Assembly: GCA_900465685.1 (NCBI GenBank)
Contig: UEGR01000012.1
Span: 1 to 64,000, forward strand
DNA: 64,000 bases
Direction: 5' to 3'
Source of the DNA: Hyphomicrobiales bacterium
Lineage (GTDB): Bacteria > Pseudomonadota > Alphaproteobacteria > Rhizobiales > Rhizobiaceae
The notes under the pieces are model-generated. The model was not told the origin of the DNA, made no database searches, and was given only the letters and a program-made list of their open reading frames with translations. Below, piece after piece: positions 46,003-64,000 of the stretch. Made by a program: the position numbers and the translations under genes. Numbering within the stretch: the first letter of the stretch is position 1; each line of letters begins with the position of its first letter.

Positions 46003-46366
46003 AACAACCCTTTCCGATGAGAATACCGGCGCTTTTAAGCGCGATTCTCACCTTCGAGGTATTCCAAGTTCTGACGCCCACAGACTGGCTCGCAGGTCCG
46101 GACGTGCGAAATGCAAGGCATAATTCCTGCGAAATGATCGCGGACGCCAAAATGAACGGAAAGGAAGTTGAGAAGAAGTGGCGATCCCGGCAGGACTGCA
46201 ATATTTTGATGTTTATGCAATTAAAACAATCGGTTAAGCGAAAGGTGTGGCGGAATAACTGCGCATTGATTCTATTATGTAATTTTAACCGTCCTTCACA
46301 CCATGGATGCTGTGGACGGTAGCGAAAAGCGCCCTACCTTCCTAGAACCAATCAAGGGAGGATTTG
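46003..46366. other. Intergenic region
   Basis: 364 bases between the small secreted-protein gene and the next plus-strand gene. It must carry divergent promoters. I see no further ORF with a convincing ribosome binding site. Confidence 0.4.
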
Positions 46367-48467: not shown

Positions 48468-48677
48468 ATGAACACCGGTACAGTTAAATGGTTTAATGCG
48501 GCAAAAGGCTTTGGATTTATTCAGCCTGAAAATGGCGGCGGCGATGCATTCGTCCATATCTCTGCAGTTGAACGCGCAGGTATGTATTCGCTGACTGAAG
48601 GCCAGAAGCTTACTTATGATCTTGAACAGGATCGCAAGTCCGGCAAGATGTCGGCATGCAATCTGCAAGCCGCTTAA
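48468..48677 (+). CDS. cspA: Cold-shock protein
   Basis: A 69-residue nucleic-acid chaperone with both RNA-binding motifs (KGFGFIQ and AFVHIS) and the family start MNTGTVKWFNAAKG. It melts RNA secondary structure, typically at low temperature. The frame is open upstream, but GAAAGGGG lies just before the ATG at 48468. It is followed by a strong terminator. Confidence 0.95.
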   Translation: MNTGTVKWFNAAKGFGFIQPENGGGDAFVHISAVERAGMYSLTEGQKLTYDLEQDRKSGKMSACNLQAA

Positions 48678-49079: not shown

Positions 49080-49322
49080 TCACTTATGAAACCAGCCCCA
49101 AAGTTTGAGCGTATTCTCATATAGCGATGCAATGCCAACGATGATCGCTAGGATCGTGATCGCAAGCCACTTCACGACATGGCCCATAGTGCGCACTGTC
49201 GCGTAGAACTTCATCGCGTCTTCCAGATTGTCGATATCGTCTTCGTCCAGCTTTGACAGGAATTCCTTTGTCCGCTCTGGAATTTCAACGAGACGGTTGG
49301 CAGTCCGTGCTTCATTATCCAT
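49080..49322 (-). CDS. Small membrane protein at the end of the prophage lysis cassette
   Basis: An 80-residue protein starting MDNEARTANR: an acidic soluble N-terminus with EDDIDNLEDAMKF, then one transmembrane helix (about residues 48-66) and a short tail. It overlaps the Rz1-like gene by 8 bases and is the last gene of the lysis operon. It could be an antiholin or a second holin, but this is only suggested by the position. Confidence 0.65.
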   Translation of the reverse strand: MDNEARTANRLVEIPERTKEFLSKLDEDDIDNLEDAMKFYATVRTMGHVVKWLAITILAIIVGIASLYENTLKLWGWFHK

Positions 49323-49629
49323 TGGTGTCACGTATCTCCTCCTTCAAATCATCGTAAAATCCCGCACAGCGATCCGTTCTTGCGTTCTGCCGATCCAGCG
49401 CGTCACGTTCTCGTTTGAGGAGCGAGCGGATTTCTGTGCCTTCCGTGAGCGCCGCATGAGGCTCATTCGTTCGACAGTCTTCTGGATAAGCCGGAAGCGT
49501 GACGCGAGCCTGTGCTGTCCCTTGCGCCGTCGCCGCCTGTTTCAACTGGCGATCAAGGCTTGAGCAGCCAGATGCGATCAGCATTATCGAGCAGGCAAGC
49601 CCTGCCTTCATCAGCAAGCCGTGTTTCAT
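49315..49629 (-). CDS. Rz1-like outer-membrane spanin lipoprotein
   Basis: A 104-residue lipoprotein with a signal peptide and lipobox LIASGC followed by SS. Its start lies inside the Rz-like gene in another frame (77-base overlap), the classical arrangement of Rz/Rz1. It should form with Rz a complex spanning the periplasm that fuses both membranes at lysis. At 104 residues it is longer than the classical Rz1, and the Pro richness is low. Confidence 0.75.
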   Translation of the reverse strand: MKHGLLMKAGLACSIMLIASGCSSLDRQLKQAATAQGTAQARVTLPAYPEDCRTNEPHAALTEGTEIRSLLKRERDALDRQNARTDRCAGFYDDLKEEIRDTNG

Positions 49630-49915
49630 AGGCCGCTATCTCCTGTTCTGATTGTTCCGCCCTGGCTGTTTCTGCCGCACGTGCGTTGGAAAGCTGTTCC
49701 TGGTACGCCGAGATGACGTACTTGCCCGCCTTGATCTGGCGGTCTCGTTCGGCAATTTGTGCCTCAAGGGCTGTCTTCTGTGCTTCGAGGACGTAGCCCT
49801 GTCGTGCCTCGCGCTTGATCAACGGATCATGAATGAGCAGATTGAAGCCGAGCATCAGCACGATACCGACCGCAAATCCTGCTCCTATTTTGATGTAGTC
49901 GAGCAAGCTGAGCAT
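49553..49915 (-). CDS. Rz-like inner-membrane spanin
   Basis: A 120-residue type II membrane protein: one N-terminal helix (about residues 6-26) and a periplasmic coiled coil (EARQGYVLEAQKTALEAQIA and onward to about 95). The ATG at 49915 overlaps the endolysin stop (TGATG), so translation is coupled; an upstream GTG at 49936 is less likely. It is paired with the overlapping Rz1-like gene. Confidence 0.75.
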   Translation of the reverse strand: MLSLLDYIKIGAGFAVGIVLMLGFNLLIHDPLIKREARQGYVLEAQKTALEAQIAERDRQIKAGKYVISAYQEQLSNARAAETARAEQSEQEIAAYETRLADEGRACLLDNADRIWLLKP

Positions 49916-50424
49916 CACTTCAGCCCCGCCAGACACAGTTCAAGCTCGCCAATCCGTTGCGCATCGCCGTATTCCCGGCGCTTCTTCAGGCCTTCGGCAA
50001 CTTTGCCCCCTGCCCGGTTGAACAAGGTCATTGCGTTGCAGGCCGCTGGCCAGTTCTTTTCCCGCATCCGTTTTGCTGCTGACGACGAACAGGCGGCACC
50101 GGTGCCGATGTTGTACGACAGATCGAGCATGGAAGCCTGAACACTGATCGGCGCGGCATCGAAAGTGACGATGCACTTCTGTAGCGGCTTGTGGAAATCG
50201 TTCTCCAGCCGGGTTTGCAGCATCTGGAGACACTTGGCGTCCGAATAGTAATCGCCCTTCTTCACCCCCTTGGTTTCGCCGGCGCAGACCGTCCAGACCT
50301 TACCGAGGCTATCCCAATAGGCTTTGTTCTCCACGCCTTCCCATGGGACCGTGAGATAAGTTGCCGTCAATGCGACAAGGCCAAGGCCAGACGCCAAAGC
50401 GCCCTTTGCTCGCTTACTCTTCAT
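49915..50424 (-). CDS. Phage endolysin (lysozyme, GH24 family) with SAR signal anchor
   Basis: A 169-residue muramidase that cuts peptidoglycan at the end of the lytic cycle. The triad fits E-8-D-T: Glu29 in WEGVENKAYWD, Asp38 and Thr45, with six rather than five residues before the Thr. The N-terminal hydrophobic segment (residues 8-25) is rich in Ala, Gly, Ser and Thr and lacks a cleavage site, typical of a signal-arrest-release anchor. It overlaps the holin gene by 11 bases. The Met of MKSKRAKG is chosen. Confidence 0.85.
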   Translation of the reverse strand: MKSKRAKGALASGLGLVALTATYLTVPWEGVENKAYWDSLGKVWTVCAGETKGVKKGDYYSDAKCLQMLQTRLENDFHKPLQKCIVTFDAAPISVQASMLDLSYNIGTGAACSSSAAKRMREKNWPAACNAMTLFNRAGGKVAEGLKKRREYGDAQRIGELELCLAGLK

Positions 50425-50635
50425 TTCTGAATTCCTTCTGTGAAACGATGCGCGCAACAAAGGCCCCTGCCGTGATGATCAGCGACAGAGCAGCAAACGC
50501 GCCGGTTGGGATGGGGAGAGCGTCACCGATCAACGGCAACACGACTTCAAGGCCGGAAAGAATACCGGCGAGCAAAAGCAAACGGATGCTCCACGCGCGC
50601 GCGAGCACCCGCTTCCAGTCGGAAACGAGTTTCAT
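50414..50635 (-). CDS. Phage holin candidate
   Basis: A 73-residue membrane protein with two hydrophobic helices (about residues 14-34 and 42-62), a basic N-terminus (MKLVSDWKRVLARAW) and a charged end (SQKEFRNEE). Size, topology and position directly upstream of an endolysin gene point to a holin. The Met at 50635 is preferred to the open frame up to 50707. Confidence 0.75.
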   Translation of the reverse strand: MKLVSDWKRVLARAWSIRLLLLAGILSGLEVVLPLIGDALPIPTGAFAALSLIITAGAFVARIVSQKEFRNEE

Positions 50636-50803
50636 GGATTGCTTATCTTTCGGTTGGCCGGCAGACCGAGTGGCTGCCCGAGGGTTATTGCCAGCGTTTG
50701 CAGGCACTAAAAATTTTATTCGCAGAGCATTGAAACGCGGTGCAGCTTCACTAAATCGAAGCCGTCATTCCAACACACTTCGTTCGATCAAATGGAGGTT
50801 TCG

Positions 50804-51567: not shown

Positions 51568-52650
51568 ATGAATTTTAATTCCGTAGCGCGAACCGACACC
51601 CCGCTCAAATTCAATGAAAATCTACAATATATTCGCGCATTCGCTGCTATGTCCGTAATGCTGTATCATGCAGCTCATTATGTGCATGCACACCTAGGCG
51701 CTGGACTTTATGACGTTTTCCATCATTTCTTAGGCCTGTATGGCGTGGCGATTTTCTTCGCCCTCTCAGGTTATCTTATGGTGGAATTATCAAGCAGGCA
51801 AAATGCACATGCCTTCTTGGCAGCTCGGATAATTCGCATCTATCCAGCCTTGTTAATTGCTACCCTTTTTGCACTAATTTCAGATCCGTTCCGATTAATT
51901 GAAAAATTCAATTGGGTATCCATAACCCTCGTTCCGGCAGGACCTATTTTCTATGTGTTAAATGTTGAATGGACACTTGTTCACGAGATGTTTTTTTACC
52001 TCTTGGTTTTCGGCTTTATAAGTTTAAACCTCCGGAAATTCCTTCCTTTATTTGCCGCATGTTGGATTGCGTTATTATTGGCAAGATATGGCGCCCCCAT
52101 GCCACGAATTGGGCGGGCCAATATAGCGGAAATGTTCTTTATGACGGCGAATGCAGGATTTGCGGCAGGTTTGATCGTTCCCGTCATTTTGAGCCGTATC
52201 CCGCGAACGCCTATGCTCATGATCGCGGGCTTCTGTTTGAGCATTCCTTTAACGTTCTTTGTACCAGCATACTTCGCCCGCATCACTTCGGGAGTCGGTT
52301 CTGCGTTTCTAATTGTAGCTGCGCTACAGACTACAGCGCCGGTTTTTCGGGGTGCTTCTGCCCGCGCACTGAAGAGCTTAGGGGATTGGAGTTACGCAAT
52401 GTATCTGATCCATGTGCCCGTAATACTATTGGTCGTTCGTCATTTACCAAGTTTCAAATGGCCGGAAATTACTTACTTTCTATGCGTAGGCGCTGCCACA
52501 TTGGCCTCTGTAGTGCTCGGAAGAGCCGACATAAAAATACATCAGGTCACTCGGAATATATTGAAAAGGACACCGACGGTCACGCTTAACGCGGGCGTCA
52601 ATCTATTTGTGATAGCTTATATTTTAATTTCTATGATTATCTTTTTTTAA
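51568..52650 (+). CDS. Membrane acyltransferase (acyltransferase 3 family)
   Basis: A 360-residue integral membrane protein with about ten helices. The family motif with the conserved Arg and His is LQYIRAFAAMSVMLYHAAHY near residue 20, with IFFALSGYLMVEL near 65. Members O-acetylate surface sugars such as LPS O-antigen or exopolysaccharide. It lies in a distinctly AT-rich segment between prophage lysis genes and tailspike, next to a glycosyltransferase, which suggests lysogenic conversion. Confidence 0.88.
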   Translation: MNFNSVARTDTPLKFNENLQYIRAFAAMSVMLYHAAHYVHAHLGAGLYDVFHHFLGLYGVAIFFALSGYLMVELSSRQNAHAFLAARIIRIYPALLIATLFALISDPFRLIEKFNWVSITLVPAGPIFYVLNVEWTLVHEMFFYLLVFGFISLNLRKFLPLFAACWIALLLARYGAPMPRIGRANIAEMFFMTANAGFAAGLIVPVILSRIPRTPMLMIAGFCLSIPLTFFVPAYFARITSGVGSAFLIVAALQTTAPVFRGASARALKSLGDWSYAMYLIHVPVILLVVRHLPSFKWPEITYFLCVGAATLASVVLGRADIKIHQVTRNILKRTPTVTLNAGVNLFVIAYILISMIIFF

Positions 52651-52858: not shown

Positions 52859-55800
52859 ATGATTAGCCGTATTAAATCTCACCTTTCCATACTCCGTAGG
52901 AACGTTACGAGGCTACGGGTATGGAGGGATGTAAGAGAAATTAAATCATCTCATCTTTTTGACGGACCGTACTATTTAGAGAGAAATCCAGATGTCCGCG
53001 CGGCTAATGCGGACCCCGCTTCTCACTACATTCAATACGGCTGGAGAGAAGGGCGTCGACCAAGTGAGTTGTTTGACGGACATAACTATCTAGGGATGAA
53101 CCCCGATGTTGCGGCGTCTGGGCAAAATCCACTTCTCCATTATATTCGGCATGGGCGCGCCGAACGTCGGCCTGTGAATAGATCCATATCTATTGTTCAG
53201 CCATTACATGAAATTCCATCAAATCCACCTGATCAAACAATTGATCAGGCGATTGATCACGTCACGAATGAAGAGTACGTTAAGTCACTTGAAACATTCT
53301 ACGAACGAAATTTTACGAAGATTTCTTCTTTAAAGGTTTCAATTGTTATTCCTACTTATAATAGATCATCTACAGTTTGCGATGCAATCGATTCCATCTT
53401 AAACCAAACCCACCAAAACTTCGAAGTTCTCGTTTGCAATGACGGAAGCACCGACGACACAGCGGAAAAGATCAAATCGCATTATGGTTTCGACCCAAGA
53501 ATAAAACTAATAAACCTGCAGAAATCTCATGTAAGTATCACGCGTAACGCCGGGCTTGATTCCGCTAGCGGAGACTTCATAGCATTCCTAGACAGCGACA
53601 ATCGTTGGACGAATAATTATCTTCGTTACATGATATGTGTTTGCCTGAGTGAAAAAGTCGATATTGCATATAGCGGCCTTATTGCGGTCGATGCTGACGG
53701 GAATGGTCTATTTACTCGCGGGGAATCTTTTGACCGTGAAAAATGCCGTAAAGGAAACTATATCGACCTCAATGTATATTTCTACCGTCGAACCCCAAAA
53801 ACTGACATAAGATTCGATCCGAAACTTAAGCGGACAGTCGATTGGGATTTCATTCTGCAACAAACTATCGGGCAGAAAGTTATTTATGCTCCGTTTGTTG
53901 GATGCGAATATGTCCATGACATGTCGGACACGAGCCGCATCTCTGTTACCCAGCCAAACATCTATCGCGCTATCGTAAGGGCGCGTCACAGCCAACCGAA
54001 GCCTATTCCTGATAATCAGATCTATAAGGCTATCGCGCTCCAAATAGCTATTAAGATACCAGCCCCAAGAGCCAAGGCAGCGCAATGGGGAGACTTTCAC
54101 TTTGCAACATCTCTATCGAAAAGCTTTGCCGCGCTTGGCCATACACCTCGAATAGACTTTCTGGATGACTGGGCGGATCATCGGTTCGATCAATCCGATC
54201 ATGTGGTTATCGTGCTTCGCGGGTTGTCTCAGTTTGAGCCTCAACCCGCTGCGATCAATGTAATGTGGAATATTAGTCACCCCGATCAGGTTGATTACGA
54301 TGAGTATGACAGTTACGATATTGTTTATACTGCTTCGCAAAGCTTCACGTCACTTCTTAAAGAAATATCGACATCCACTGTAAAAACGCTTTATCAGGCG
54401 ACAGATATTGAGCGTTTTCATCCAGATCTCAAAAGCGCCAATCTCGTTCACGAAATCTTATTTGTGGGGAATTCTCGTCGCATTTATCGTGATATTGTTC
54501 GGTGGTCTATAGAATCCGGAAATTCACCAGATGTCTACGGAACCCTCTGGAATGATTATATCCCGGCTGGTTTGATCAAAGGAACCAACATAAACAATGA
54601 AGACTTAGGCATTTACTACGCTTCAGCCAATTTTGTTTTGAATGATCACTGGGAGTCGATGCGCGAGTATGGCCTTCTCTCAAACAGGCTGTTTGATTGT
54701 GTAGCTTGCAATACAACCGTTATTTCTGATGCGGTTCCTTCTTTGGCTTCGATCTTCGGCGATGCCGTCATTCAGGTGACAAGCCAGGATAAATTGTCGA
54801 ATGCGTTTAAAAAGAGAACAGCCCGTCAGACTAGAATGCTCGCAGAAGCTGGTAAATTTGTTCGCGAGCATCACAATTTTGATGTTCGTGCGAAAACAAT
54901 TATCCGCGATGTTTTAGAACATATCGGCATTCAAACACCTGAAGAGGAGTTGGCTAAGCCATTTATTCAACAACAGACGCCCATTAAGGTGGCGACAATC
55001 GCACCGTGGAATGGAAAGCACTTCCAAAGCTCCCTCTATCTCCGGCTTTTGGCTCCTATCACCTCCGAAACAAACGCCAATAAGATCGAAGTCACCTGTC
55101 TTCGTCCGGATCAATTGGAGGACATTGGCGGCTACGACGCCGTAATTGTTCAACGTGCTTCAGTCGGTTCATCAGAAGCCGCGGAGCGCATTATCGATTT
55201 GGCCAATGAGAACAATACCGCGCTAATTACAGACGTGGACGATGGGTTCATTCTAATTGATGATACGCACCCAGAATTCGACCTGTACCAGTCCAAAAAT
55301 GATGCCCTTAATAAGTTGATATCCAACAGCAGAGAGAATTGGTTCTCAACGCAACATCTAGCGGATGCTTACAGCGAAGTAAGTTCCAACCCCCTGATAG
55401 TTGAAAATTGCCTGGATCCGCGCTTCTGGAAAAATTATCGTCACTCGCATACGCCATTCACTAATCCGGTTATGCGAATGGTCTATATGGGAACGGCCAC
55501 CCATGACGAAGATTTCAACCTCATACTTAACCAGTTAGATGAATTGAATGAAGTTGCTCCAGGCGCGTTCGAGCTGACAGTAATAGGCGCTGTTCGACGG
55601 CTCCCCAACCGTTCATGGCTCTCCAGTCTAGCGGTGCCCACGGGATACGGCGCTTATCCTCGCTTTGTTCGATGGATGATGAAGAACAATCATTTTGATG
55701 TTGGTTTGGCGCCGCTTGTCAGCAACAAATTTAATGATTGCAAATCCGATCTAAAAATACTCGACTATACGGCAATGGGTATAGTTCCTGTCGTTTCCAA

Positions 55801-56008
55801 TGTGATTTCTTATCGAGATACAGCTACAAATTACAATTGTGCTTTCGTCACGGAAGATCATAATTGGGCTGAGATGCTCCGCTCCATCAACAATGATCGT
55901 GACGGAGCAATTGAAGTTCTTTCAAACGCTAAGAACTACCTTTGGAAGGAGAGACACGTGTCAACAGCTGCTTCCATCATTAGAAACCGCATCCAATCGG
56001 TGGCTTAG
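52859..56008 (+). CDS. Three-module glycosyltransferase
   Basis: A 1049-residue multidomain protein. Residues 33-106 hold two copies of a roughly 36-residue motif (FDGPYYLERNPDV and FDGHNYLGMNPDV, each followed by HYI...G). A GT2 domain follows (VSIVIPTYN at 160-168, NDGSTDD at 194-200, DSD at 245-247). The middle part (about 400-690) resembles CgeB-like/GT4 transferases (for example ILFVGNSRRIYRD and REYGLLSNRLFDC). The last part (about 700-1049) is a second GT4-like domain (DVDDGF; LKILDYTAMGIVPV). Cytoplasmic, probably building a surface glycan. AT-rich; the start has only a weak GGGG about 10 bases upstream. Confidence 0.85.
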   Translation: MISRIKSHLSILRRNVTRLRVWRDVREIKSSHLFDGPYYLERNPDVRAANADPASHYIQYGWREGRRPSELFDGHNYLGMNPDVAASGQNPLLHYIRHGRAERRPVNRSISIVQPLHEIPSNPPDQTIDQAIDHVTNEEYVKSLETFYERNFTKISSLKVSIVIPTYNRSSTVCDAIDSILNQTHQNFEVLVCNDGSTDDTAEKIKSHYGFDPRIKLINLQKSHVSITRNAGLDSASGDFIAFLDSDNRWTNNYLRYMICVCLSEKVDIAYSGLIAVDADGNGLFTRGESFDREKCRKGNYIDLNVYFYRRTPKTDIRFDPKLKRTVDWDFILQQTIGQKVIYAPFVGCEYVHDMSDTSRISVTQPNIYRAIVRARHSQPKPIPDNQIYKAIALQIAIKIPAPRAKAAQWGDFHFATSLSKSFAALGHTPRIDFLDDWADHRFDQSDHVVIVLRGLSQFEPQPAAINVMWNISHPDQVDYDEYDSYDIVYTASQSFTSLLKEISTSTVKTLYQATDIERFHPDLKSANLVHEILFVGNSRRIYRDIVRWSIESGNSPDVYGTLWNDYIPAGLIKGTNINNEDLGIYYASANFVLNDHWESMREYGLLSNRLFDCVACNTTVISDAVPSLASIFGDAVIQVTSQDKLSNAFKKRTARQTRMLAEAGKFVREHHNFDVRAKTIIRDVLEHIGIQTPEEELAKPFIQQQTPIKVATIAPWNGKHFQSSLYLRLLAPITSETNANKIEVTCLRPDQLEDIGGYDAVIVQRASVGSSEAAERIIDLANENNTALITDVDDGFILIDDTHPEFDLYQSKNDALNKLISNSRENWFSTQHLADAYSEVSSNPLIVENCLDPRFWKNYRHSHTPFTNPVMRMVYMGTATHDEDFNLILNQLDELNEVAPGAFELTVIGAVRRLPNRSWLSSLAVPTGYGAYPRFVRWMMKNNHFDVGLAPLVSNKFNDCKSDLKILDYTAMGIVPVVSNVISYRDTATNYNCAFVTEDHNWAEMLRSINNDRDGAIEVLSNAKNYLWKERHVSTAASIIRNRIQSVA

Positions 56009-56014: not shown

Positions 56015-56257
56015 ATGTCAGACACATTCACAAAAAAGGAAGTTGCTGAAATGATGGCGGCGTATACCGCCATCACTGCACAACTATCCGAAATGCTTAT
56101 CTAAGTTGGCATTCTCAATAGAAAAGAATGGGTAAACGAATTATATCGTCTACTTAACATTCAGATGCGGGATTATCACGGCCAACCGATGAACGCGAGA
56201 TCAGCGCCTCTCAAACACCTCGTTCATCTTCTGGAAATTGACGGCTTGTCTAGCTGA
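56015..56257 (+). pseudogene. Small ORF with an in-frame TAA stop
   Basis: Starting at ATG 56015 (7 bases after the glycosyltransferase stop) the frame encodes MSDTFTKKEVAEMMAAYTAI, then a TAA at 56102-56104, and then continues open in the same frame for 50 codons (NRKEWVNELYRLLNIQ ... LLEIDGLSS) to the TGA at 56255. Both halves look like protein sequence with normal codon use. Either one gene was cut by a point mutation, or the stop is read through, or only the first 29 codons are used. It is unrecognised. Its end overlaps the tailspike stop. Confidence 0.5.
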
Positions 56258-58610
56258 CGACTTTCACGATCCCGCCATCATTCCACAGTTGCCCAATGGT
56301 TCCGGGCGCAGACGTGGGAAGGTTCAATAAGCGAGGCTTGTCAATCTCGACAAGTCCAGTTCCATTACCAGCTAGACGCAAGCTCTTAGCTCCACCAGAA
56401 ACACCCGGAGAAGCAGCAATGCCCGTAACCGTCGAGCTATTAAGGCGCGAGATGTTACCCTGCCCATCCCATATAATATCTAGCGAGCCGGTTTCCTGAT
56501 ACGCGGTCGTTGTGAAATTTGTCCACGGGCAGAACCGATCCATACGACCTTTAATGCTGCAATAATTGGCTGCAATCTCGAACGGTTTAATCGGCGGGAA
56601 AACGATAACAAACGTATCTGTTATCAAAGCTGGCGTGACGAGGTTGAGCGAGTTTGGCCCGAACGTGTAATCGGTCGTTGCCGTCAACTGAACGCCATTC
56701 TTCAAGACATAAGAAGATGCGCCGGTTTGCGTCGCGCCCCCGCCCCATGGCTGGAGATTAAATTGAGTTTGACCGGCTGTTAGATTATTCCGTTTGGCAT
56801 CAAAATAAATCTTGTCGGACATTACTCGACAATTTGCAAAAGATGTACCGCTATCAGACGTCCTAAACCCATATCTGCCATGGGCAGGAATGCAAACAAT
56901 GTCATGGAAATGACTACCATCATCAAAAGCGTAGGGCGTTGCCCCTCCCGGAATTGCCGTGACTTCAGCCCATTTTGCAGTTCCTTGGCCGATGTTTACG
57001 GCAAATGAAGACCACGACCGAACAGCAATTGCCGTACCTTTAGGATTGGCCCCCTCACAATACCAGTTGGTCAATGTTGACATGGCGGACACCTGACGGA
57101 AATCGCCGGTATCGGCTAGAGCAGTACCAGGCACAAAGTCAATACCGGGCATATCATCTGGGATGCCGTACACTGCGATATTGTTCAGATTTGCTGCTCC
57201 CCTGATACCAATGCCGGATGGAGTGCCTGCACCTGTGCGCTGTCCAAAGTCACGAACGGTAATCGCGTCCATGAATACCCCACGGGATAGCGGGGTTGGA
57301 GTTAGTATGTAAGGCCCGTGAACCTTCCAGTCTATGCCATCCGCTCCGGTATTAGCTGTATCAATATCCTCAAGCCTGACTTTATCAAGCTGCATATTTT
57401 GACCTATGCCGTAGCTCGAAACGTCATGAATATATAAAGACTTCAACGTGATGTTTTCAGAAACGGTATCATAAGACACCGAAGGGCCGAAGAATATGCC
57501 ATGCATTGCATCTACGTTGCTACCATGTCCGGATATCTCAAATCCTTCTATTCTGCCATTCGCATAATCCTGCGGATAAATGCAAACCTGTGTACTGTGC
57601 CCACCTTCCGTAATGATCTTCGTAGTCAACTTTCCAGACCCTACCAAGCTAATGCCTGCGGGTAACGTTAAGAATACAACCAATGAACTAATTGTAGGCG
57701 GAGCGGCTGAGAAAATCTGATAATATGCAGATGTTTCTGTTGAGGCAAAAAGATAGTTACTGAGCGGGGCTCGAATGGTACCACCACCCATAGCGACCAT
57801 GTAATCGCGGCAAGCCCGAAAGGCCGGAGCATCGTCGGCAATACCGTTACCTCGGGCACCGAACATCTCGACCGTAACGCCAGAGTTCACCAGTTCCCAC
57901 CATGCCCCATCGGCGGACTGCACCTTGCCGGGGTGAGACGGCTCGGATGCAACGCGCTTGTAGAGTGCATCGCCGCCGTCACCGGGGACGGAATAACCTC
58001 CGGTGCGGATGTAGGCGATAGCCTCCGGAATTTCGATACCAGACACGGCCAATGCGGTCGATATGCCAGGCACCATGCCACCTGCAATTGCATCGTTCGC
58101 ATAATCTGCCGCCCTTTCGGCCCACCACTTCGAGGAATGATCAGATAAGCCATCACCGCCAGAGGCTACAGATATCGGGTTCTCCGACTGCGCCCATTCC
58201 TTTGCGGCTTTTGCCGCGAGCGCCAGCGCGGCCGCGTTAACAGAACCTGACGACAGTTCAAACAAAACAGCCGAAGTCCCTATATTGACGGGGTTCTCGC
58301 TAACAAGCTCGTATTCGGCAGGGCCATGCTCGCCGTCCGTTACCCAGACGCGAGTACCTTTGACTGCATCACGGGTTTTATTGAAGTCCTTTGTTCTAGA
58401 CCATGGGCCACTGTCAACACGATATAGACCATTCTCGCTTTCGCTATCCTGAAGGCGGACGAGAACACGGTCGCCCCATGTTAGTTCCACGCCGTCGATA
58501 GTCTGCAATCCGGTAAGCAGGATATTGCCCGTAGTCGCTACACGGCATGGTCCCTTGTAAGCGACAGACGAGGTTAGCCCATCAAGGCGGTCGATCTGGA
58601 TAGATGTCAT
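56250..58610 (-). CDS. Phage tailspike (beta-helix, pectate-lyase-like)
   Basis: A 786-residue receptor-binding protein. N-terminal module (residues 1-120) has the fold with GPCRVATTGNILLTGLQTID and GPWSRTKDFNKTRDAVKGT, seen in phage tail proteins. Then a linker rich in Ala, and the beta-helix entrance motif VTVEMFGARGNGIADDAPAF near residue 250. The parallel beta-helix follows (right-handed, with repeated short strands; for example DAMHGIFFG, ITLKSLYIHDVSSYG, ADGIDWKVHG). Tailspikes usually bind and cut surface polysaccharide. It stands alone behind two terminators on the minus strand. Confidence 0.88.
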   Translation of the reverse strand: MTSIQIDRLDGLTSSVAYKGPCRVATTGNILLTGLQTIDGVELTWGDRVLVRLQDSESENGLYRVDSGPWSRTKDFNKTRDAVKGTRVWVTDGEHGPAEYELVSENPVNIGTSAVLFELSSGSVNAAALALAAKAAKEWAQSENPISVASGGDGLSDHSSKWWAERAADYANDAIAGGMVPGISTALAVSGIEIPEAIAYIRTGGYSVPGDGGDALYKRVASEPSHPGKVQSADGAWWELVNSGVTVEMFGARGNGIADDAPAFRACRDYMVAMGGGTIRAPLSNYLFASTETSAYYQIFSAAPPTISSLVVFLTLPAGISLVGSGKLTTKIITEGGHSTQVCIYPQDYANGRIEGFEISGHGSNVDAMHGIFFGPSVSYDTVSENITLKSLYIHDVSSYGIGQNMQLDKVRLEDIDTANTGADGIDWKVHGPYILTPTPLSRGVFMDAITVRDFGQRTGAGTPSGIGIRGAANLNNIAVYGIPDDMPGIDFVPGTALADTGDFRQVSAMSTLTNWYCEGANPKGTAIAVRSWSSFAVNIGQGTAKWAEVTAIPGGATPYAFDDGSHFHDIVCIPAHGRYGFRTSDSGTSFANCRVMSDKIYFDAKRNNLTAGQTQFNLQPWGGGATQTGASSYVLKNGVQLTATTDYTFGPNSLNLVTPALITDTFVIVFPPIKPFEIAANYCSIKGRMDRFCPWTNFTTTAYQETGSLDIIWDGQGNISRLNSSTVTGIAASPGVSGGAKSLRLAGNGTGLVEIDKPRLLNLPTSAPGTIGQLWNDGGIVKVVS

Positions 58611-58630
58611 ATGGAAGGCTCCATGAAAAA

Positions 58631-58652
58631 AGCCGCCCTGTGAAGGACGGCT
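58631..58652 (-). terminator. Terminator-like hairpin upstream of the tailspike gene
   Basis: Minus strand: AGCCG (58631-58635) and CGGCT (58648-58652) extended with CCT/AGG and one mismatch, followed by six T on the minus strand (58626-58630 side). Confidence 0.65.
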
Positions 58653-58670
58653 TGCGGTAGATATGAAAAA

Positions 58671-58686
58671 GAGGCCCGTAGGCCTC
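58671..58686 (-). terminator. Terminator of the arc-ant operon
   Basis: Perfect stem GAGGCC-CGTA-GGCCTC (58671-58686) with five T following on the minus strand; just downstream of the small gene at 58691-58864. Confidence 0.8.
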
Positions 58687-58690
58687 TCTG

Positions 58691-58864
58691 TTAGTTTTGG
58701 CGGACCATCGCCCAGCCGATTTCGTGGTTCACATCAAATCGCCACGTGCCACCGTGGATTGACTGCATAGCCGCCGCGAGTTTCTGGCAAAGAACCTTGA
58801 TTTCGTCGGCTTTATTCTCCGCCTCAGCGGCTGTTTGGAAGAATGGTGAGGTTTTCAGCATCAT
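58691..58864 (-). CDS. Small phage protein, unknown (57 residues)
   Basis: Too short for common gene finders. Begins MMLKTSPFFQTAAEAENKAD and ends in a tryptophan-rich HGGTWRFDVNHEIGWAMV. The ATG overlaps the stop of the preceding gene (ATGA), so it is translationally coupled. Last gene before the operon terminator. Function unknown. Confidence 0.75.
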   Translation of the reverse strand: MMLKTSPFFQTAAEAENKADEIKVLCQKLAAAMQSIHGGTWRFDVNHEIGWAMVRQN

Positions 58865-59064
58865 GCGCCATCCTCGTCATTGAACGGCCCATAAGCGATG
58901 AATCCGTGCCCGATTTCATCAGACTTGCTGATCGGTCGGACGATTGCATACTCAATATCCGCGTCCATCGTGTCGAGGCACTGGGCCAACTCACGCATGA
59001 GACGGCGAGAGCGCATCCAAGGATTCTCAATCTGGGGAACCGGGAGTTTTGCAACGTTTGCCAT
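58861..59064 (-). CDS. Small phage protein, unknown (67 residues)
   Basis: Begins MANVAKLPVPQIENPWMRSR; a soluble helical protein with an acidic end (FNDEDGA). GGAG lies just upstream, 12 bases after the antirepressor stop. It belongs to the antirepressor operon. No family recognised. Confidence 0.75.
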   Translation of the reverse strand: MANVAKLPVPQIENPWMRSRRLMRELAQCLDTMDADIEYAIVRPISKSDEIGHGFIAYGPFNDEDGA

Positions 59065-59076
59065 CGTGTGTCTCCC

Positions 59077-59793
59077 TTAGTGTAACGGTTGCTCGATCAG
59101 TTCGGCCAGTTTGACCAAACCTTTCGCTGTCACCAAAACACGGGTAGAAACGCGCTCTTGGCCGAGATCATCCATATAAAGATGGTCATCATGCTCAAGA
59201 AGCAGAGATTTACGCTTGTCATCGTAGGCCAGCCAGTTCTTGTTGCCAGAGCGCTTGAAAATCCACCGGCGGGACGACATGAAGTCGAAAAGCCAAGTGC
59301 GTGTGACACCAAGTGTCTTAGCAGCATCGCTGATGCACATAGACCCCCGCGCACCTTCTAGCCGATCTAGCTTTTTAAGACGGCCTTGCTGCTCCTGCAC
59401 CTTTTCTTGAAGATGACCGATCACGCCGAGAACGACCGCAGGGTTGGAAAAATCGAGCGGAGCTTGCTGTCCTTCCAGATATTCCAGCTTCTTTACGACC
59501 TTGTAGCGAAGGTCAGCACGGTAACCGGTGACGAGCGTGACAGTCAGGTCTTTCGGAAGCCGGTATTCCTTGAGCGCTCGACCTGTGCTGTCCGTATAAC
59601 TAGACAAGAAATCACTCACCCCAAATTTGGGGTCAGCAATATCTTGTAGCATCTTCTCGATATCACGCAAAATGTGGTCGTGACGTTTGCCGGTCAGTTC
59701 CGCAATCTCGCGGCTAGTCATGGTGACGGGTGATCCGCCTTGAGACTGGCCGAGGCCTGTTGATATCAAATCGGTATGTGTGGTACTGTCCAT
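59077..59793 (-). CDS. Phage antirepressor/regulatory protein (Rha N-terminus with KilAC C-terminus)
   Basis: A 238-residue protein of two domains. The Rha-type N-terminal part (residues 23-110) reads VTMTSREIAELTGKRHDHIL with YLDSTGRALKEYRLPKDLT-type strands (here YTDSTGRALKEYRLPKDL) and GYRADLRYKVVKKLEYLE. The C-terminal KilAC/ANT part (about 150-235) contains DAAKTLGVTRTWLFDFM and RVLVTAKGLVKLAEL. Such proteins inactivate phage repressors and allow induction. It lies 42 bases downstream of an Arc-like repressor gene, like ant of P22. AGGAA precedes the ATG. Confidence 0.85.
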   Translation of the reverse strand: MDSTTHTDLISTGLGQSQGGSPVTMTSREIAELTGKRHDHILRDIEKMLQDIADPKFGVSDFLSSYTDSTGRALKEYRLPKDLTVTLVTGYRADLRYKVVKKLEYLEGQQAPLDFSNPAVVLGVIGHLQEKVQEQQGRLKKLDRLEGARGSMCISDAAKTLGVTRTWLFDFMSSRRWIFKRSGNKNWLAYDDKRKSLLLEHDDHLYMDDLGQERVSTRVLVTAKGLVKLAELIEQPLH

Positions 59794-59835
59794 CTTACAT
59801 TCCTATTCATCGTGGGGATTTGAAAAGGTCGAGGA

Positions 59836-60003
59836 TCACGCTCTGCAAAGCGCCTCGGCCTTTTCGTTTTTCTTCGACGCCATGATGCATCGAATTATCT
59901 CGTCGTTTTGAGATGTGAAGTTTTCCTTCGCTTTTGCGTTAAGCCAATCTTTCAACTCTCGGGGTAACCTCAACGTGAGGCTGGACCTATTGTCAGTTTT
60001 CAT
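59836..60003 (-). CDS. Arc-like ribbon-helix-helix repressor
   Basis: A 55-residue protein beginning MKTDNRSSLTLRLPRELKDW: the beta-strand SLTLRLP, then two helices, a ribbon-helix-helix repressor of the Arc family. The ATG at 60003 has an excellent AGAGGAG; the open frame upstream is not used. It is the first gene of the operon with the antirepressor and is divergent from the Mnt-like gene, so it presumably represses both from the operators between them. Confidence 0.88.
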   Translation of the reverse strand: MKTDNRSSLTLRLPRELKDWLNAKAKENFTSQNDEIIRCIMASKKNEKAEALCRA

Positions 60004-60017
60004 GTACTCCTCTTTCT

Positions 60018-60081
60018 GACGTCTGTTTGACGTCATCAACATAGCAGACGCCAAAATGGCGTCAAGCGCCAAAATGACGTC
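60018..60081. promoter_or_regulatory. Three 17-base operator boxes between the Arc-like and Mnt-like genes
   Basis: Boxes of the form GACGYC-5 bases-GRCGTC: GACGTC-TGTTT-GACGTC (60018-60034), GACGCC-AAAAT-GGCGTC (60047-60063) and AGCGCC-AAAAT-GACGTC (60065-60081). All are palindromic or nearly so. The third box ends 2 bases before the plus-strand ATG, so the plus-strand gene has no ribosome binding site and may be translated from a leaderless transcript. They are the obvious sites for the two flanking repressors. Confidence 0.85.
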
Positions 60082-60083
60082 AA

Positions 60084-60536
60084 ATGGAAAAAGAACAAGA
60101 AATTATTCGCACGAGCCTTCGCTTGCCCAAGGATTTGTATGACAAGCTGTCCGCTGCTGCTGGCGGCAGAACCATGCACGCCGAGATTCTGTCTAGACTA
60201 GAAAACTCTCTAGATAACTATGACTCACTGTCAGATGTTACTGAGAAAGCAATAGAAACGTTAGAGAGAATTTCCGAAGAATCAAAGTTGGAAGTGGCTC
60301 AATTTAAGTACATGTTATCGCAAGTAAAAATGATGCGATATTTATTGGACCAATTTGCTTCCAGTGACGGCTCTGTTCCTGAAGAACTGTTAGATATTGT
60401 TAAAATTCTTTCAGAAAATTCAGAGAAAAAGGCTGAAGAATTTAGTCTTAGCCGATTTATTGAGCTTTTTGAGGAAGCTTACCGAGCGCAGGAAGCCGTG
60501 GAAGAACTAGAAGCCAAAAGCCCTGACGACAAGTAG
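60084..60536 (+). CDS. Mnt-like ribbon-helix-helix repressor with long C-terminal coiled coil
   Basis: A 150-residue protein. N-terminal ribbon-helix-helix IIRTSLRLPKDLYDKLSAAA (residues 7-26), then the second helix (HAEILSRLENSLDNY). The C-terminal 90 residues are acidic and helical with heptad-like pattern (VTEKAIETLERISEESKLEV, and EKKAEEFSLSRFIELFEEAY), likely for oligomerisation, as the short Mnt tail does in P22, but longer here. It has no visible ribosome binding site. Confidence 0.85.
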   Translation: MEKEQEIIRTSLRLPKDLYDKLSAAAGGRTMHAEILSRLENSLDNYDSLSDVTEKAIETLERISEESKLEVAQFKYMLSQVKMMRYLLDQFASSDGSVPEELLDIVKILSENSEKKAEEFSLSRFIELFEEAYRAQEAVEELEAKSPDDK

Positions 60537-60569
60537 CCCTCGACTACGACGAATAGGCGCCATAAATTC

Positions 60570-60626
60570 GTATCATCTCACGATACTTTTCTATTGACTG
60601 TCACGCCTCGTATCGTGTAATGATAC
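60570..60626 (+). promoter_or_regulatory. higBA promoter with two operator palindromes
   Basis: Two 17-base boxes of GTATC-RT-N3-AY-GATAC type: 60570-60586 (GTATCATCTCACGATAC) and 60610-60626 (GTATCGTGTAATGATAC), 40 bases apart. A -35 element TTGACT (60594-60599) lies between them and a -10-like TAATGAT (60618-60624) lies in the second box, so the start of transcription would fall at or very near the higB ATG (60630), suggesting leaderless mRNA. The antitoxin pair probably represses through these boxes. Confidence 0.75.
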
Positions 60627-60629
60627 GTC

Positions 60630-60914
60630 ATGATCAGATCGTATAAAGACAAGCTGACAGCAGAGATTGCCAGTGGCAAATCCCCGAAAGGATTTCCGCC
60701 CGATCTCATTAAGGCTGCGCGGCGCAAGCTGGTCATGCTCGACAACGCTGCCGCCCTTGATGACTTGAAATCACCGCCCGGCAACAAACTGCACCCCTTG
60801 GTCAAGGATCGTGCCGGTCAGCATGCGATCTGGATAAATGACCAGTTCAGACTATGTTTTCGCTGGACCGATGCAGGCCCCGAAGATGTTGAGATAACCG
60901 ATTACCACGATTGA
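60630..60914 (+). CDS. higB: HigB/RelE-type toxin
   Basis: A 94-residue ribosome-dependent mRNA interferase of the RelE superfamily: LIKAARRKLVMLDNA, SPPGNKLHPLVKDRAGQHAI and the final strand FRLCFRWTDAG. Toxin comes first and antitoxin second, the order typical of higBA. It lies in the prophage between the Mnt-like repressor and a small membrane gene, so it probably keeps the prophage from being lost or acts in phage exclusion. Confidence 0.88.
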   Translation: MIRSYKDKLTAEIASGKSPKGFPPDLIKAARRKLVMLDNAAALDDLKSPPGNKLHPLVKDRAGQHAIWINDQFRLCFRWTDAGPEDVEITDYHD

Positions 60915-60924
60915 GGAGAAAGCT

Positions 60925-61221
60925 ATGACCACTCTTGGCTTTACCATTCATCCCGGCGAAATCCTGCGCGAGGAATACCTGGCTCCGCTTAATCTGAAGC
61001 CTTATACGCTGGCAAAGAAGCTTCATATCCCGCGCACTCGCATCGAGCGCCTTGTTGCAGAACATGCTCCTGTCACCCCGGATACCGCACTTCGGCTTGC
61101 CAAGTTCTTCGGCACGACCCCGCAGTTCTGGATGAACATGCAGGCGTCCTATGACCTCGCGAATGAGGCGAAGGCGAAAAAGGCCGAAATTGACGCTATC
61201 GAACACCTTGAGGCGGCGTGA
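60925..61221 (+). CDS. higA: HigA-type antitoxin (XRE family)
   Basis: A 98-residue helix-turn-helix antitoxin with the family start LGFTIHPGEILREEYLAPLNL and the recognition region IPRTRIERLVAEHAPVTPDT, then FFGTTPQFWMNMQASYDL. GAGGAGA lies 6 bases before the ATG and 10 bases separate it from higB. It should bind HigB and repress the operon. Confidence 0.93.
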   Translation: MTTLGFTIHPGEILREEYLAPLNLKPYTLAKKLHIPRTRIERLVAEHAPVTPDTALRLAKFFGTTPQFWMNMQASYDLANEAKAKKAEIDAIEHLEAA

Positions 61222-61248
61222 CCATGCCCCGCTTCGGCGGGTTTCGAA

Positions 61249-61452
61249 TTAGCAATCAGATGCAAACCGCCCGTAATCTCGACACGCGCCGGAGAACTTA
61301 TCCTTCGGCCCCATGGAACATGACGCAGCGAACAGCGCGAGAGCGATTGCCCCACCTGTTACGATTTTCCAACCATTTGACTGATCGAAACCAGTCCATG
61401 CGAAAATGAAACCGGCGACGGCTCCGATGAATAACAGGATCTGCAACAGCAC
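61249..61452 (-). CDS. Small membrane protein, unknown
   Basis: A 67-residue protein with two hydrophobic segments (about 3-20 and 29-46) and a polar C-terminus with four Cys in total. It starts with GTG directly after the TGA of the upstream large gene with no gap, so it is probably translated by coupling. It could be a superinfection-exclusion or holin-like protein (P22 has the exclusion gene sieA at a comparable place), but no similarity to SieA is claimed. Confidence 0.6.
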   Translation of the reverse strand: MLLQILLFIGAVAGFIFAWTGFDQSNGWKIVTGGAIALALFAASCSMGPKDKFSGACRDYGRFASDC

Positions 61453-64000
61453 TCAGTTTTTCCTTGTCTCAGGTAGGTTCATCGCATCGCCTGTTGCATC
61501 TTCTACCTTATTAATAAGCGAACGGATATAGAACAAATTCTGAAACGGCATGAGTTGCCGAAGCTTATGCAAATCTGATTTCGTCGTGTCCCCTGCAAAT
61601 ATTGAGCCAGATACCTGGAATATGTCCGCCACAGCGTCAGGAGTTGGCCCAAAGAAGGCACCGATGACGTTTCGGGACTGATAACGGCTCATTGGTTCTC
61701 CGGTCAGCGCCGAGAGACCAACACGCCCGCGAGAAGCCTTTTCAGCAATATTATTCACGTCCATAAACCATCCAGTCAGGCCGGACTTATCAAACGCTTC
61801 CGCGGCCCAGACTGTCGGGCTATCAGATATCTCACGTCCAGCCGCTGCTTGTTTAGTGGCGTAAACCATCGCACCGAGGGTGAGAGCCGTGACAACGCCG
61901 CTCAAAGTTTCTGCATCCCTCTGTTGAAGTCCTGCTAAAACGACACGCTGCATCGCCGACACGTTGAAGCTTCGAAACTGCCCCACTGTCTTGCCAAGCT
62001 CGGTGCTCATCCACAGCGGCTTATCCTGCCCCGGCGTAACGATAATGCGGTCAACGTCGCGCACGACTGCGGTGCGAAATGCTTCTTTCGCAAGACGATC
62101 ATCCCAGTCAGCGGCTTTGGCGAGCATGACGCCGCTCTGATTGTCTCCGTATTTTGCAAACTGCTTGCTAATGCGCTCAGCCAGATCGGAATTGATCCCC
62201 GCAGATGCCAGCTTGCGGATTTCATTCGGACTGGCCTGCCCTTTGGCCACCTTCTCCGAAGCTCTAAGCAGATTGGTCATGACAACCATGCCGCTGAATT
62301 GCTTCATCGCAGCGTTCCACGGGGCCATGAGAGACACGACACCGAAGCGCGTTCCTGCCGATTTGATGGCACGTTCGAATTTTGTCCCCCGTCCGAACTC
62401 ATCACCGATTTCTGCAAGTGACATGGCGCGGCTGTCGAGGATCATATCGAGCGCCGTTCCTGCGGACTTCACCTCTGCAGCTGCCAGTTTCACTGCTTTC
62501 ATGTTCGATACCAGAGGCGCGAAGCCATCCCGGAATGTCGAAGTCAGACCATGCTTGAGAATGATGCCCGCCATGTCCGGGAAGGCTGAGAGTGTCATGC
62601 CGCCGAGCAAACGGAGATAATTCAGGTTGCGCGCCACGCGACCGGCGCGAAGCACGATGCCATCAGGATTTGAAGGGATTGCATACTGGCCCCGGATACG
62701 GTCGCGCATAGCCTCGATATCGCGGACGGCAGCTTTGCGAGCCTTTTCCAGCCGCTGGCGCTCCTTGGCCTTGGCTTCTGGCGCGGCGGACTTTCCGTCC
62801 TTGCCCATCATCCCATCGACAACGGCAATCTTACGGTTCGCCTCATCGTTAATCTTACGGATTTGCTCGGCCATATCGACAGAACCGAATTTCTTGGCAA
62901 GCTCCACATTTGCCGACATGGTGCGCACCTGAGCGTGGAGCACTTCCTCAATATCCGTGTTGAGGAATTCCTGTATCTTCTTGCTTTCAATACGCAAAAG
63001 ACGCTCTTTCAGAGGCCCGCGAGGGCCTGAGACGATGCTGTCATAAGGGATGCGTCCATCTGCATTGCCGAGAATCGTATCTATCGTTTCGTCTACCAAG
63101 TCTTTTACTTCATCATCCGACAGGCGCGAAAACTCATCAGCCTTTCGGGCTGCGGCGTCCGCCTTGGCATCGGCTTTTCTGGCGATATTTTCCGCATCGC
63201 CAATCTTGGCAGCAGCATTACGCTTGGTGATAAAATAGTCATTCAGAATTCGTGCGAAATCAGAGCGATACGCGGCGATCTTATCCTTATTGTACATGCG
63301 GAAAAGATGAGATACGTCTGCCTCAACCGCGATATCTTTGGGGAAAAGTCGCGCTTCAATCGCTGCATTCTTCATTGCGTTATCAATCTGACGATAGACC
63401 TTCGCGGCTTCCGCGACTTCTGGAATAGCATGAGCATCCCCAGAGAAAGCAGCCCTACCGACTTCCTCTTTAAACTGCTTGTAGGTTAGCTTGTCACCGC
63501 CAGTGATGCGCTGCATTTCCGAGCGCATAGGCGCAAGACGGCGCTGCCACCCGGACGGATCAGGCGTACCATGGAAATATTTCGCGTAAGCCGTGTCCAT
63601 CTGCTGTAAGCTATCAGCAAGCGGAGCCTGCCACATCTTCATTCTGGTTTCGACTGATCCGCCTATTTCCGTTGCCACGCCCTGCGCATTGGCGCTGTAT
63701 TCCAGCGGGGTTTCCGCCAATTGGCGTACTGTCTGGCGCGTGGTGTCGAAATCGGACAGCTGCGAGCGAATGAGCGGGTCTTGCGACCGGACGCCCCATA
63801 GTTTGTTGATGACCGCCTCGTCCTTCAACTGCAACGGGCCAATGTCCCGCGCCGCGGCGCCTGCTGACTGAGCGCCGGAACTACCACCGAATACGGCATT
63901 GTCGGCCTCGGTGAATGCCTTGCCCTGCCCCTCAATCTTTCGAGAAAGAGCCGATGCTTCTGCCTGCGACAAATACCGGCCAACAAGCGTTCCAAGAGCG
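61453..64000 (-). CDS. Large Ala-rich phage protein, probable virion/ejection protein (partial)
   Basis: The frame is open to the right edge, so the gene continues beyond the window; at least 848 residues are visible. A TTG at 63972 would be an internal start, but coding-like sequence continues before it (ALGTLVGRYL). The protein is soluble, helical and rich in Ala, Lys, Arg and Glu, with an Ala/Lys/Asp coiled-coil stretch (IARKADAKADAAARKADEFS) and later hydrophobic segments (MTLSAFPDMAGIIL; GVVTALTLGAMVYATK). Size and place next to the immunity locus match P22 gp16-like ejection proteins, but no sequence family is recognised. Confidence 0.55.
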   Translation of the reverse strand, partial: ALGTLVGRYLSQAEASALSRKIEGQGKAFTEADNAVFGGSSGAQSAGAAARDIGPLQLKDEAVINKLWGVRSQDPLIRSQLSDFDTTRQTVRQLAETPLEYSANAQGVATEIGGSVETRMKMWQAPLADSLQQMDTAYAKYFHGTPDPSGWQRRLAPMRSEMQRITGGDKLTYKQFKEEVGRAAFSGDAHAIPEVAEAAKVYRQIDNAMKNAAIEARLFPKDIAVEADVSHLFRMYNKDKIAAYRSDFARILNDYFITKRNAAAKIGDAENIARKADAKADAAARKADEFSRLSDDEVKDLVDETIDTILGNADGRIPYDSIVSGPRGPLKERLLRIESKKIQEFLNTDIEEVLHAQVRTMSANVELAKKFGSVDMAEQIRKINDEANRKIAVVDGMMGKDGKSAAPEAKAKERQRLEKARKAAVRDIEAMRDRIRGQYAIPSNPDGIVLRAGRVARNLNYLRLLGGMTLSAFPDMAGIILKHGLTSTFRDGFAPLVSNMKAVKLAAAEVKSAGTALDMILDSRAMSLAEIGDEFGRGTKFERAIKSAGTRFGVVSLMAPWNAAMKQFSGMVVMTNLLRASEKVAKGQASPNEIRKLASAGINSDLAERISKQFAKYGDNQSGVMLAKAADWDDRLAKEAFRTAVVRDVDRIIVTPGQDKPLWMSTELGKTVGQFRSFNVSAMQRVVLAGLQQRDAETLSGVVTALTLGAMVYATKQAAAGREISDSPTVWAAEAFDKSGLTGWFMDVNNIAEKASRGRVGLSALTGEPMSRYQSRNVIGAFFGPTPDAVADIFQVSGSIFAGDTTKSDLHKLRQLMPFQNLFYIRSLINKVEDATGDAMNLPETRKN

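What the first reader, a model, noticed from the sequence alone, without database searches (positions are those of the whole stretch)
56250..61452. P22-like right-end architecture in an alphaproteobacterial prophage
Read on the minus strand, the order is: large virion-type protein, small membrane protein, (higBA), Mnt-like repressor, operators, Arc-like repressor, antirepressor, tailspike, sugar-modifying genes. Phage P22 has gene 16, sieA, mnt, arc, ant, gene 9 (tailspike), gtr conversion genes in this order, with mnt divergent from arc-ant as here. The proteins are different (Rha/KilAC instead of P22 Ant; a different tailspike), so this is either an ancient shared module or convergent assembly.
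Basis: partly seen in the sequence, partly recalled or inferred. Interest (0 to 1): 0.85.

Follow-up and report, generated by a model that had tools for sequence, protein, structure and literature searches.

The report
Portable antirepressor switch in prophage remnant
A broken prophage of the epsilon15 type carries a compact lysogeny switch laid out like the one of phage P22, probably including its antisense RNA, and the same switch recurs in quite different phages.

Summary
The gene order is real, but the phage is not P22-like. The window holds part of a 25-kb prophage remnant (46177 to 71302 of the contig; 19-bp att repeats, tRNA-Arg). It belongs with the epsilon15/TL-2011b podoviruses; terminase, portal, capsid and tail genes were not found. 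A same-genus prophage that has them (G033) lacks the cassette. Phage SPC32H has the same order: internal virion protein, small membrane protein, ant, tailspike, O-antigen gene, lysis genes.

The cassette has P22 immI layout: divergent Mnt-like and Arc-like genes over three 17-bp operator-like sites, then an antirepressor of another family (Rha + KilAC). It recurs in 28 of 154 homologous loci (25 on a stricter count), with a tape-measure gene nearby in 9 of 16 scanned: a portable 'ant moron', a kind described in 2008.

Not seen in the paper searches made: the arc-ant junction looks like a sar-type antisense RNA gene (antisense promoter over the ant start, hairpin paired best on the antisense strand, T-rich tail). 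The trio occurs in 10 of 23 cassette clusters, 12 of 600 control gene starts, and 22 of 119 antirepressor genes outside the cassette. No transcript was measured. New variant of a known kind.

The parts
46177..46195 (.). left attachment repeat (attL); its copy is at contig 71284-71302, at the 3' end of tRNA-Arg(tct)
   Evidence: 19-bp exact direct repeat, longest found between the two flanks; tRNA call
49315..50707 (-). lysis genes: holin, lysozyme, Rz- and Rz1-like ORFs
   Evidence: phrog_1356 holin, PF00959; Rz/Rz1 by position and overlapping frames only
51568..52650 (+). acyltransferase, probable surface sugar modification
   Evidence: PF01757 E 1e-22
52859..56008 (+). multidomain glycosyltransferase
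   Evidence: PF00535, PF13524
56250..58610 (-). tailspike-type protein, virion-type N-terminus and beta-helix middle
   Evidence: PHROG tail and head families; N-terminus matches a capsid decoration protein, middle matches mannuronan epimerases
58691..58864 (-). 57-aa ORF downstream of ant
   Evidence: phrog_32610; homologue behind ant in L073 and L042
58861..59064 (-). 67-aa ORF downstream of ant, no family
59077..59793 (-). antirepressor: Phage_pRha N-terminus, KilAC (ANT) C-terminus
   Evidence: PF09669 and PF03374 over cut-off; phrog_63 anti-repressor; dN/dS 0.17 against L069
59760..59872 (+). candidate sar-type antisense RNA gene: -35 TTGATA 59760-59765, -10 TACTGT 59784-59789, transcript about 59796-59872, hairpin 59822-59865, T-rich tail
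   Evidence: prediction only
59836..60003 (-). Arc-like ribbon-helix-helix repressor, 55 aa
   Evidence: PF03869; P22 Arc structures matched
60018..60034 (-). operator-like site O3, over the expected ant transcript start
60038..60065 (-). predicted arc-ant promoter TTGACG-16-TATGTT with extended -10
   Evidence: 3 promoter-like sites found, 1.5 expected: weak alone
60047..60063 (-). operator-like site O2, perfect 17-bp palindrome between -35 and -10
60065..60081 (-). operator-like site O1 next to the mnt-like start codon
60084..60536 (+). Mnt-like ribbon-helix-helix repressor, 150 aa, divergent from arc-ant
   Evidence: PF03869 over cut-off
60630..60914 (+). HigB-type toxin
   Evidence: PF05015, phrog_3066
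60925..61221 (+). HigA-type antitoxin
   Evidence: PF01381, phrog_1381; higBA stretch 83% identical DNA in L071
61249..61452 (-). small hydrophobic protein, counterpart by position of the small membrane protein behind the internal virion protein in SPC32H
   Evidence: weak homologues in G033 and G034
61453..64000 (-). internal virion protein, continues to contig 64560 (1035 aa)
   Evidence: phrog_16310, phrog_342; 84% identical copy in G033

Best explanation
A remnant of an epsilon15/TL-2011b-type temperate podovirus holds, in the slot between its last internal virion gene and its tailspike, a transplantable immI-type cassette. Inferred working: in a lysogen the Mnt-like repressor binds the three operator sites and shuts the arc-ant promoter; after infection Arc-like protein limits the same promoter; an antisense RNA of about 75 nt, started over the ant start codon and ended at the arc stop codon, pairs with the ant ribosome site and blocks translation. 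If these locks fail, the Rha-KilAC antirepressor is made and frees phage growth, probably by inactivating a main repressor. Shown by sequence: genes, families, orientation, sites, prophage type, recurrence. Inferred: DNA binding, antisense transcription, target of the antirepressor. In this remnant no S24-type main repressor was found and none was recognised among the ORFs scanned, so the antirepressor is idle or acts on another phage.
For: Families. Prophage type, att repeats, missing genes, G033 relative. SPC32H order. Cassette in 28 of 154 loci (25 with HMMER's independent E-value), RHH within 1 kb downstream of ant in 0 of 154. Operator sites. Sar-type unit: wobble pairs on antisense 53 against 12 on sense in 24 of 27 junctions with stem score 16 or more, 20 loci leaning antisense, 1 sense, 3 even; stems of score 20 or more in 17 of 26 cassette junctions against 35 of 414 random windows; antisense -10 within ant nt 0-16 in 23 of 27 against 388 of 1489 other ORFs; combined trio 10 of 23 clusters against 12 of 600; block 59757-59878 is 81% identical to G019 while arc and ant flanks are 47 and 51%; Rfam sar at the same spot, below cut-off, in 3 of 5 loci picked for P22-like stems.
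Against: No transcript, binding or induction data. Rfam sar does not match the window. Thirteen of 23 clusters miss the trio, P22 itself among them by one T. The one junction whose chosen stem leans to the sense strand is P22's, and 11 of the 53 antisense wobble pairs come from one locus, L166. A stem score of 16 is reached by about a tenth of shuffled sequences. Ant genes without the RHH pair also show the stem, 47 of 109, with the same bias, 52 against 13, and the trio, 22 of 119, so it is not peculiar to the cassette; loci with only one RHH gene rarely have the stem, 2 of 13. The alignment of 16 antisense stretches gave no consensus pairs. The hairpin was noticed before it was tested, the thresholds were set after looking, and the RHH model was built partly from loci that were then counted.
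Confidence: 0.72

Rival explanations
1. The remnant is a diverged P22-like prophage and the whole right end (16 to gtr) was inherited as one block.
For: Same order of functions as P22.
Against: No P22 virion protein matches; IVP relatives are TL-2011b and similar; the cassette occurs away from such a right end, with tape-measure genes nearby, and the G033 relative lacks it in this slot.
Confidence: 0.05
2. The hairpin at the arc-ant junction is a sense-strand attenuator or terminator that limits ant, not the end of an antisense RNA.
For: Stems are strong on both strands.
Against: Pairing is better on the antisense strand, T-rich tails follow it there (mean 5.4 of 10 against 2.0 on the sense side for stems of score 18 or more), and antisense promoters sit at a fixed place over the ant start.
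Confidence: 0.17
3. The conserved junction is only a recombination linker along which arc and ant variants are exchanged, without RNA function.
For: A short block is conserved between cassettes whose arc and ant differ.
Against: Antisense wobble asymmetry and promoter placement are not expected of a linker, and many junctions with different sequences keep a stem.
Confidence: 0.12
4. The RHH pair belongs to the toxin-antitoxin genes and does not govern ant.
For: HigBA lies directly behind the Mnt-like gene here and in L071.
Against: Matches to the window's HigBA stand beside the RHH pair in only 2 of the 9 loci with such a pair listed (the window's own among them), while RHH genes keep to the upstream side of ant.
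Confidence: 0.06

Closest known systems
P22 immI region (mnt, arc, sar, ant) and the 'ant moron' of P22-like phages (PMC2629481, section 15 read)
   Same: Two Arc-family repressors divergent over a shared operator region, ant behind arc, hairpin and antisense promoter at the same places, located just upstream of the tailspike
   Different: Antirepressor of another family, Mnt-like protein longer and without the Mnt C-terminal domain, higBA added, no sieA match, host phage of epsilon15 type; sar-like unit without Rfam sar match
SPC32H (Uetakevirus, KC911856)
   Same: Order internal virion protein, small membrane protein, ant, tailspike, O-antigen acetylase, lysis genes
   Different: Its 86-aa ant has no Rha, KilAC or P22_AR domain, faces away from the tailspike, and no Arc/Mnt genes are annotated; main repressor gene present
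TL-2011b, EC.W1-9, ST512-KPC3phi13.3
   Same: Among the closest named internal virion proteins; an annotated anti-repressor in the same slot in TL-2011b and phi13.3
   Different: TL-2011b antirepressor is Bro-N
C4 antisense RNA of P1/P7 immI (recalled; tested only in so far as the Rfam scan includes it)
   Same: Antisense RNA control of an antirepressor
   Different: Different layout (recalled); no Rfam match other than chance-level snoRNA-type hits in the cassette

Membership tests
P22-like phage (Lederbergvirus type) | homologues of P22 terminase, portal, coat, gp4/10/26, gp7/20/16 | tested here: not met
   no match at 1e-3 among the ORFs of the 36 kb around the remnant or of the 40 kb of G033 fetched; in the remnant most such genes are missing altogether
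Epsilon15/TL-2011b-type podovirus | epsilon15-type terminase, portal and tail proteins in a syntenic relative | tested here: met
   terL 4e-15, portal 1e-30, tailA 8e-13, tailB 1e-65 against epsilon15 in G033; not present in the remnant itself
Epsilon15/TL-2011b-type podovirus | internal virion protein homologous to the group | tested here: met
   phi13.3 2e-146, EC.W1-9 4e-143, TL-2011b 2e-115; epsilon15 gp17 itself gives no match
P22 immI region | two Arc-family RHH repressors, divergent | tested here: met
   PF03869 over cut-off for both; orientation
P22 immI region | antirepressor of the P22_AR family | tested here: not met
   window Ant is PF09669 + PF03374; P22 Ant is PF10547 + PF10548
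P22 immI region | Mnt C-terminal tetramer domain PF11423 | tested here: not met
   present in P22 Mnt, absent here
P22 immI region | operators between the genes bound by Mnt and Arc | tested here: inconclusive
   three palindrome-like sites; binding not testable here
sar RNA (RF00262) | Rfam covariance model match | tested here: not met
   no sar match up to E 10 in window 58500-61600; P22 97.8 bits
sar RNA (functional type) | antisense promoter in ant, transcript over the ant ribosome site, terminator at arc stop | tested here: inconclusive
   predicted at these places; no RNA data

The most novel reading that the evidence does not exclude
ImmI is a phage-type-independent, portable lysogeny switch in which the antisense RNA unit is the conserved core while the repressors, operators and even the antirepressor family turn over; sar-type RNAs are then a large, mostly unannotated class guarding antirepressor genes across Proteobacteria, far wider than Rfam's sar.
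Probability: 0.5. Interest if true: 0.75.

Novelty: new variant of a known kind. Interest (0 to 1): 0.56.

Why it matters
P22 immI is a textbook case of layered control, known to me mainly from P22-like phages. If the same layout, antisense RNA included, is a module that long-tailed and short-tailed phages of several proteobacterial groups exchange, then antirepressors are often kept under double lock, and which lock is conserved can be tested directly. It also gives a search recipe for unannotated antisense RNAs at antirepressor genes.

Tried and rejected
P22-like backbone: rejected. Intact prophage: rejected, since terL, portal, capsid and tail proteins were not found in the region, the transglycosylase-type protein is cut to a 381-aa C-terminal piece and the integrase to a fragment. 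A first guess at the integrase, the + strand ORF at contig 69857-70885, matched no family; the fragment lies at 70632-71249. Close relatives of the Mnt-like protein in viral contigs: none. One consensus RNA structure for the junctions: the MAFFT alignment gave 0 pairs; a smaller alignment was not used because two rows were out of register; no covariance model was built. First fold scan of the junctions timed out with no output and was replaced by a lighter one (output cut in part). A weak match of the Mnt-like protein to a viral structure taken as chance. No PDB match of the internal virion protein. IVP in 13 viral records with the cassette or part of it: 0 of 13, some of them fragments and no positive control. 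Target of the antirepressor: the genome has two S24-type repressor/LexA-like genes on other contigs, not resolved. Host name: no call named it. No structure prediction was run.
Full report
What is there. The window is bases 1-64000 of a 249-kb contig of a 5.14-Mb genome. ORF listing, Pfam and PHROG scans confirm the genes of the finding. The Arc-like gene has its likely start at 60003. Both small regulators pass Pfam's Arc cut-off (25.5 and 23.0 bits against 20.4), and the Arc-like one matches P22 Arc structures.

Where it lies. A 19-bp repeat at 46177 and at 71284, the latter the 3' end of a tRNA-Arg(tct) gene, bounds a 25-kb element. Next to the tRNA is the last part of an integrase (PF00589 just over its cut-off; 43% over 99 aa to an integrase of G019). 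Between it and the internal virion protein lie an ORF with a GapR-like domain, a short cytosine methylase ORF, a NusG-like gene and small ORFs, but no recognised terminase, portal, capsid or tail-tube genes; the transglycosylase-type protein is a C-terminal piece. The element is a remnant.

What phage it was. The internal virion protein matches in 9 of 150 genomes searched, the window's own counted, so in 8 others. The same-genus genome G033 has, in order, terL, portal, protease, a major capsid protein of the Gp13-like family, tail A, tail B, transglycosylase-type protein, internal virion protein (84% identical), small membrane protein, spike, acyltransferase and lysozyme; terL, portal, tail A and tail B match epsilon15 and TL-2011b proteins. 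Its early end was not fetched. The internal virion protein finds 87 phage records, chiefly Vibrio, Proteus, Klebsiella, Rhizobium and Escherichia phages. Of 23 P22 proteins only Arc, GtrB and the lysozyme find a partner in the remnant. SPC32H, an epsilon15-type phage, has internal virion protein, small membrane protein, ant, tailspike, O-antigen acetylase, translocase, membrane protein, holin, endolysin, Rz, integrase: nearly the window's order. So the apparent P22 right end is an epsilon15-type right end with an immI cassette in it. In G033 the spike follows the small membrane protein after 86 bases, so the window's higBA-mnt-arc-ant block is an addition relative to it.

The cassette elsewhere. 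Antirepressor homologues were collected from viral contigs (the second returned only the best 80 of at least 497) and from named genomes (best 80 of 164). Of these 166 loci, 154 had the ant ORF on the expected strand with 1.5 kb upstream; 28 have the full divergent RHH pair before ant, 4 only the Arc side, 9 only the Mnt side, 113 neither; none of 154 has an RHH gene within 1 kb downstream. That count used HMMER's conditional E-value; with the independent one it is 25, 5, 10 and 114. The RHH model of 31 rows contains sequences from some of the counted loci. With the window, P22 and three loci from relatives the 28 fall into 23 clusters at 70% identity of the antirepressor. Named hosts include Shinella, Acetobacter, Xenorhabdus, Comamonas, Achromobacter, Sphingobium and Bombella. 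One large neighbouring ORF was scanned for 16 of the 28 loci: 9 are tape-measure proteins, so long-tailed phages carry the cassette. In G019, of the window's genus, it stands before a terminase-like gene and a run of further ORFs, not named by any scan. L071 shares higBA at 83% DNA identity over 658 bases, L069 the arc end and ant at 82% over 802.

The junction. Folding of the arc-ant junctions showed strong hairpins, better paired on the antisense strand, in P22 (where sar is known; annotated, Rfam 97.8 bits) and in the window. A stem search that treats both strands alike then counted wobble pairs. In the 24 of 27 junctions with stem score 16 or more there are 53 on the antisense strand and 12 on the sense strand; 20 loci lean to antisense, 3 are even, and 1, P22 itself, leans to sense; 11 of the 53 come from L166; score 16 is the 90% point of shuffled sequences. 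With a stricter limit, 17 of 26 junctions without P22 have such a stem (39 against 3 wobble pairs), against 35 of 414 random windows of the same loci, which show no strand bias (63 against 52), and 34 of 302 ends of other genes (38 against 38); ant genes without the RHH pair have it in 47 of 109 (52 against 13), loci with one RHH gene in 2 of 13. The best antisense promoter in the first 110 bases of ant has its -10 end at bases 0-16 in 23 of 27 cassettes, 44 of 120 other ant genes and 388 of 1489 other ORFs, and also a score of 9 or more in 8 of 27, 8 of 120 and 13 of 1489. All three signals together: 10 of 23 clusters, 12 of 600 control starts (a random sample), 22 of 119 ant genes outside the cassette. 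P22 itself misses by its T count, so the limits are strict, but they were chosen after looking. Window and G019 are 81% identical over 59757-59878, nearly the predicted unit 59760-59872, and 47% and 51% in arc and ant beside it. Rfam's sar model, which does not find the window, finds the same spot below its cut-off in three of five loci that I picked because their stems resemble P22's (41.8, 31.5 and 30.9 bits; cut-off 43).

Against this reading: no RNA data; 13 of 23 clusters lack the full trio; the signal also occurs at ant genes without the RHH pair, so it may belong to antirepressors in general; the joint alignment showed no consensus structure; spacers between mnt and arc reach p<0.05 for inverted repeats in only 8 of 21, P22's own not among them.

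What is in print. The epsilon34 paper (PMC2629481, section 15 read; passages) describes the P22 region between 16 and 9 as the variable 'ant moron' with mnt, arc, sar and ant, and notes gene flux there. An epsilon15-type phage with a tested anti-repressor is vB_EcoP_ZX5 (PMC9782041, passages). The Ochrobactrum podovirus sequenced in PMC5492332 (POI1126; passages) is related to Bcep22-type phages instead. PMC7067206 and PMC7549136 were seen in passages. Searches for the immI genes together, for sar with antirepressors, for C4 RNA, for KilAC/Rha with Mnt, and for 'ant moron' with sar listed no paper whose title or abstract start describes sar-type RNAs at Rha-KilAC antirepressors; most listed papers were not opened and most subscription papers are not held, so this is a weak negative.

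Verdict. Observation confirmed; interpretation partly supported. Known kind (immI/ant moron) in a new setting, with another family of antirepressor and a probable antisense RNA beyond Rfam's sar.

Noticed in passing
window 48468-48677 (+): Inside the remnant's left end is a 69-aa cold-shock-domain protein (PF00313, E 2e-22).
   Followed up: partly
L071 4417-5072: higBA 83% identical in DNA to the window's, next to an Mnt/Arc/Ant cassette and lysis genes in another phage, so the toxin-antitoxin pair may travel with the cassette.
   Followed up: partly
non-cassette antirepressor loci: 22 of 119 antirepressor genes without the full RHH pair also show the antisense promoter, hairpin and T-rich tail.
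   Followed up: partly
L237 400-1838 and G019:C2 around 698519: Same-genus genome G019 has an Mnt/Arc/Ant cassette before a terminase-like gene, and about 20 kb away a fragment of the same internal virion protein beside an integrase and a glycosyltransferase like the window's.
   Followed up: partly
window 52859-56008: A 1049-aa glycosyltransferase with a family 2 domain and a second glycosyltransferase-like domain, large for a conversion gene; relative in G019.
   Followed up: no
contig 67553-67634 (L002 7553-7634, -): ARAGORN calls a tRNA-like gene with an odd four-base anticodon inside the remnant, perhaps a decayed tRNA.
   Followed up: no
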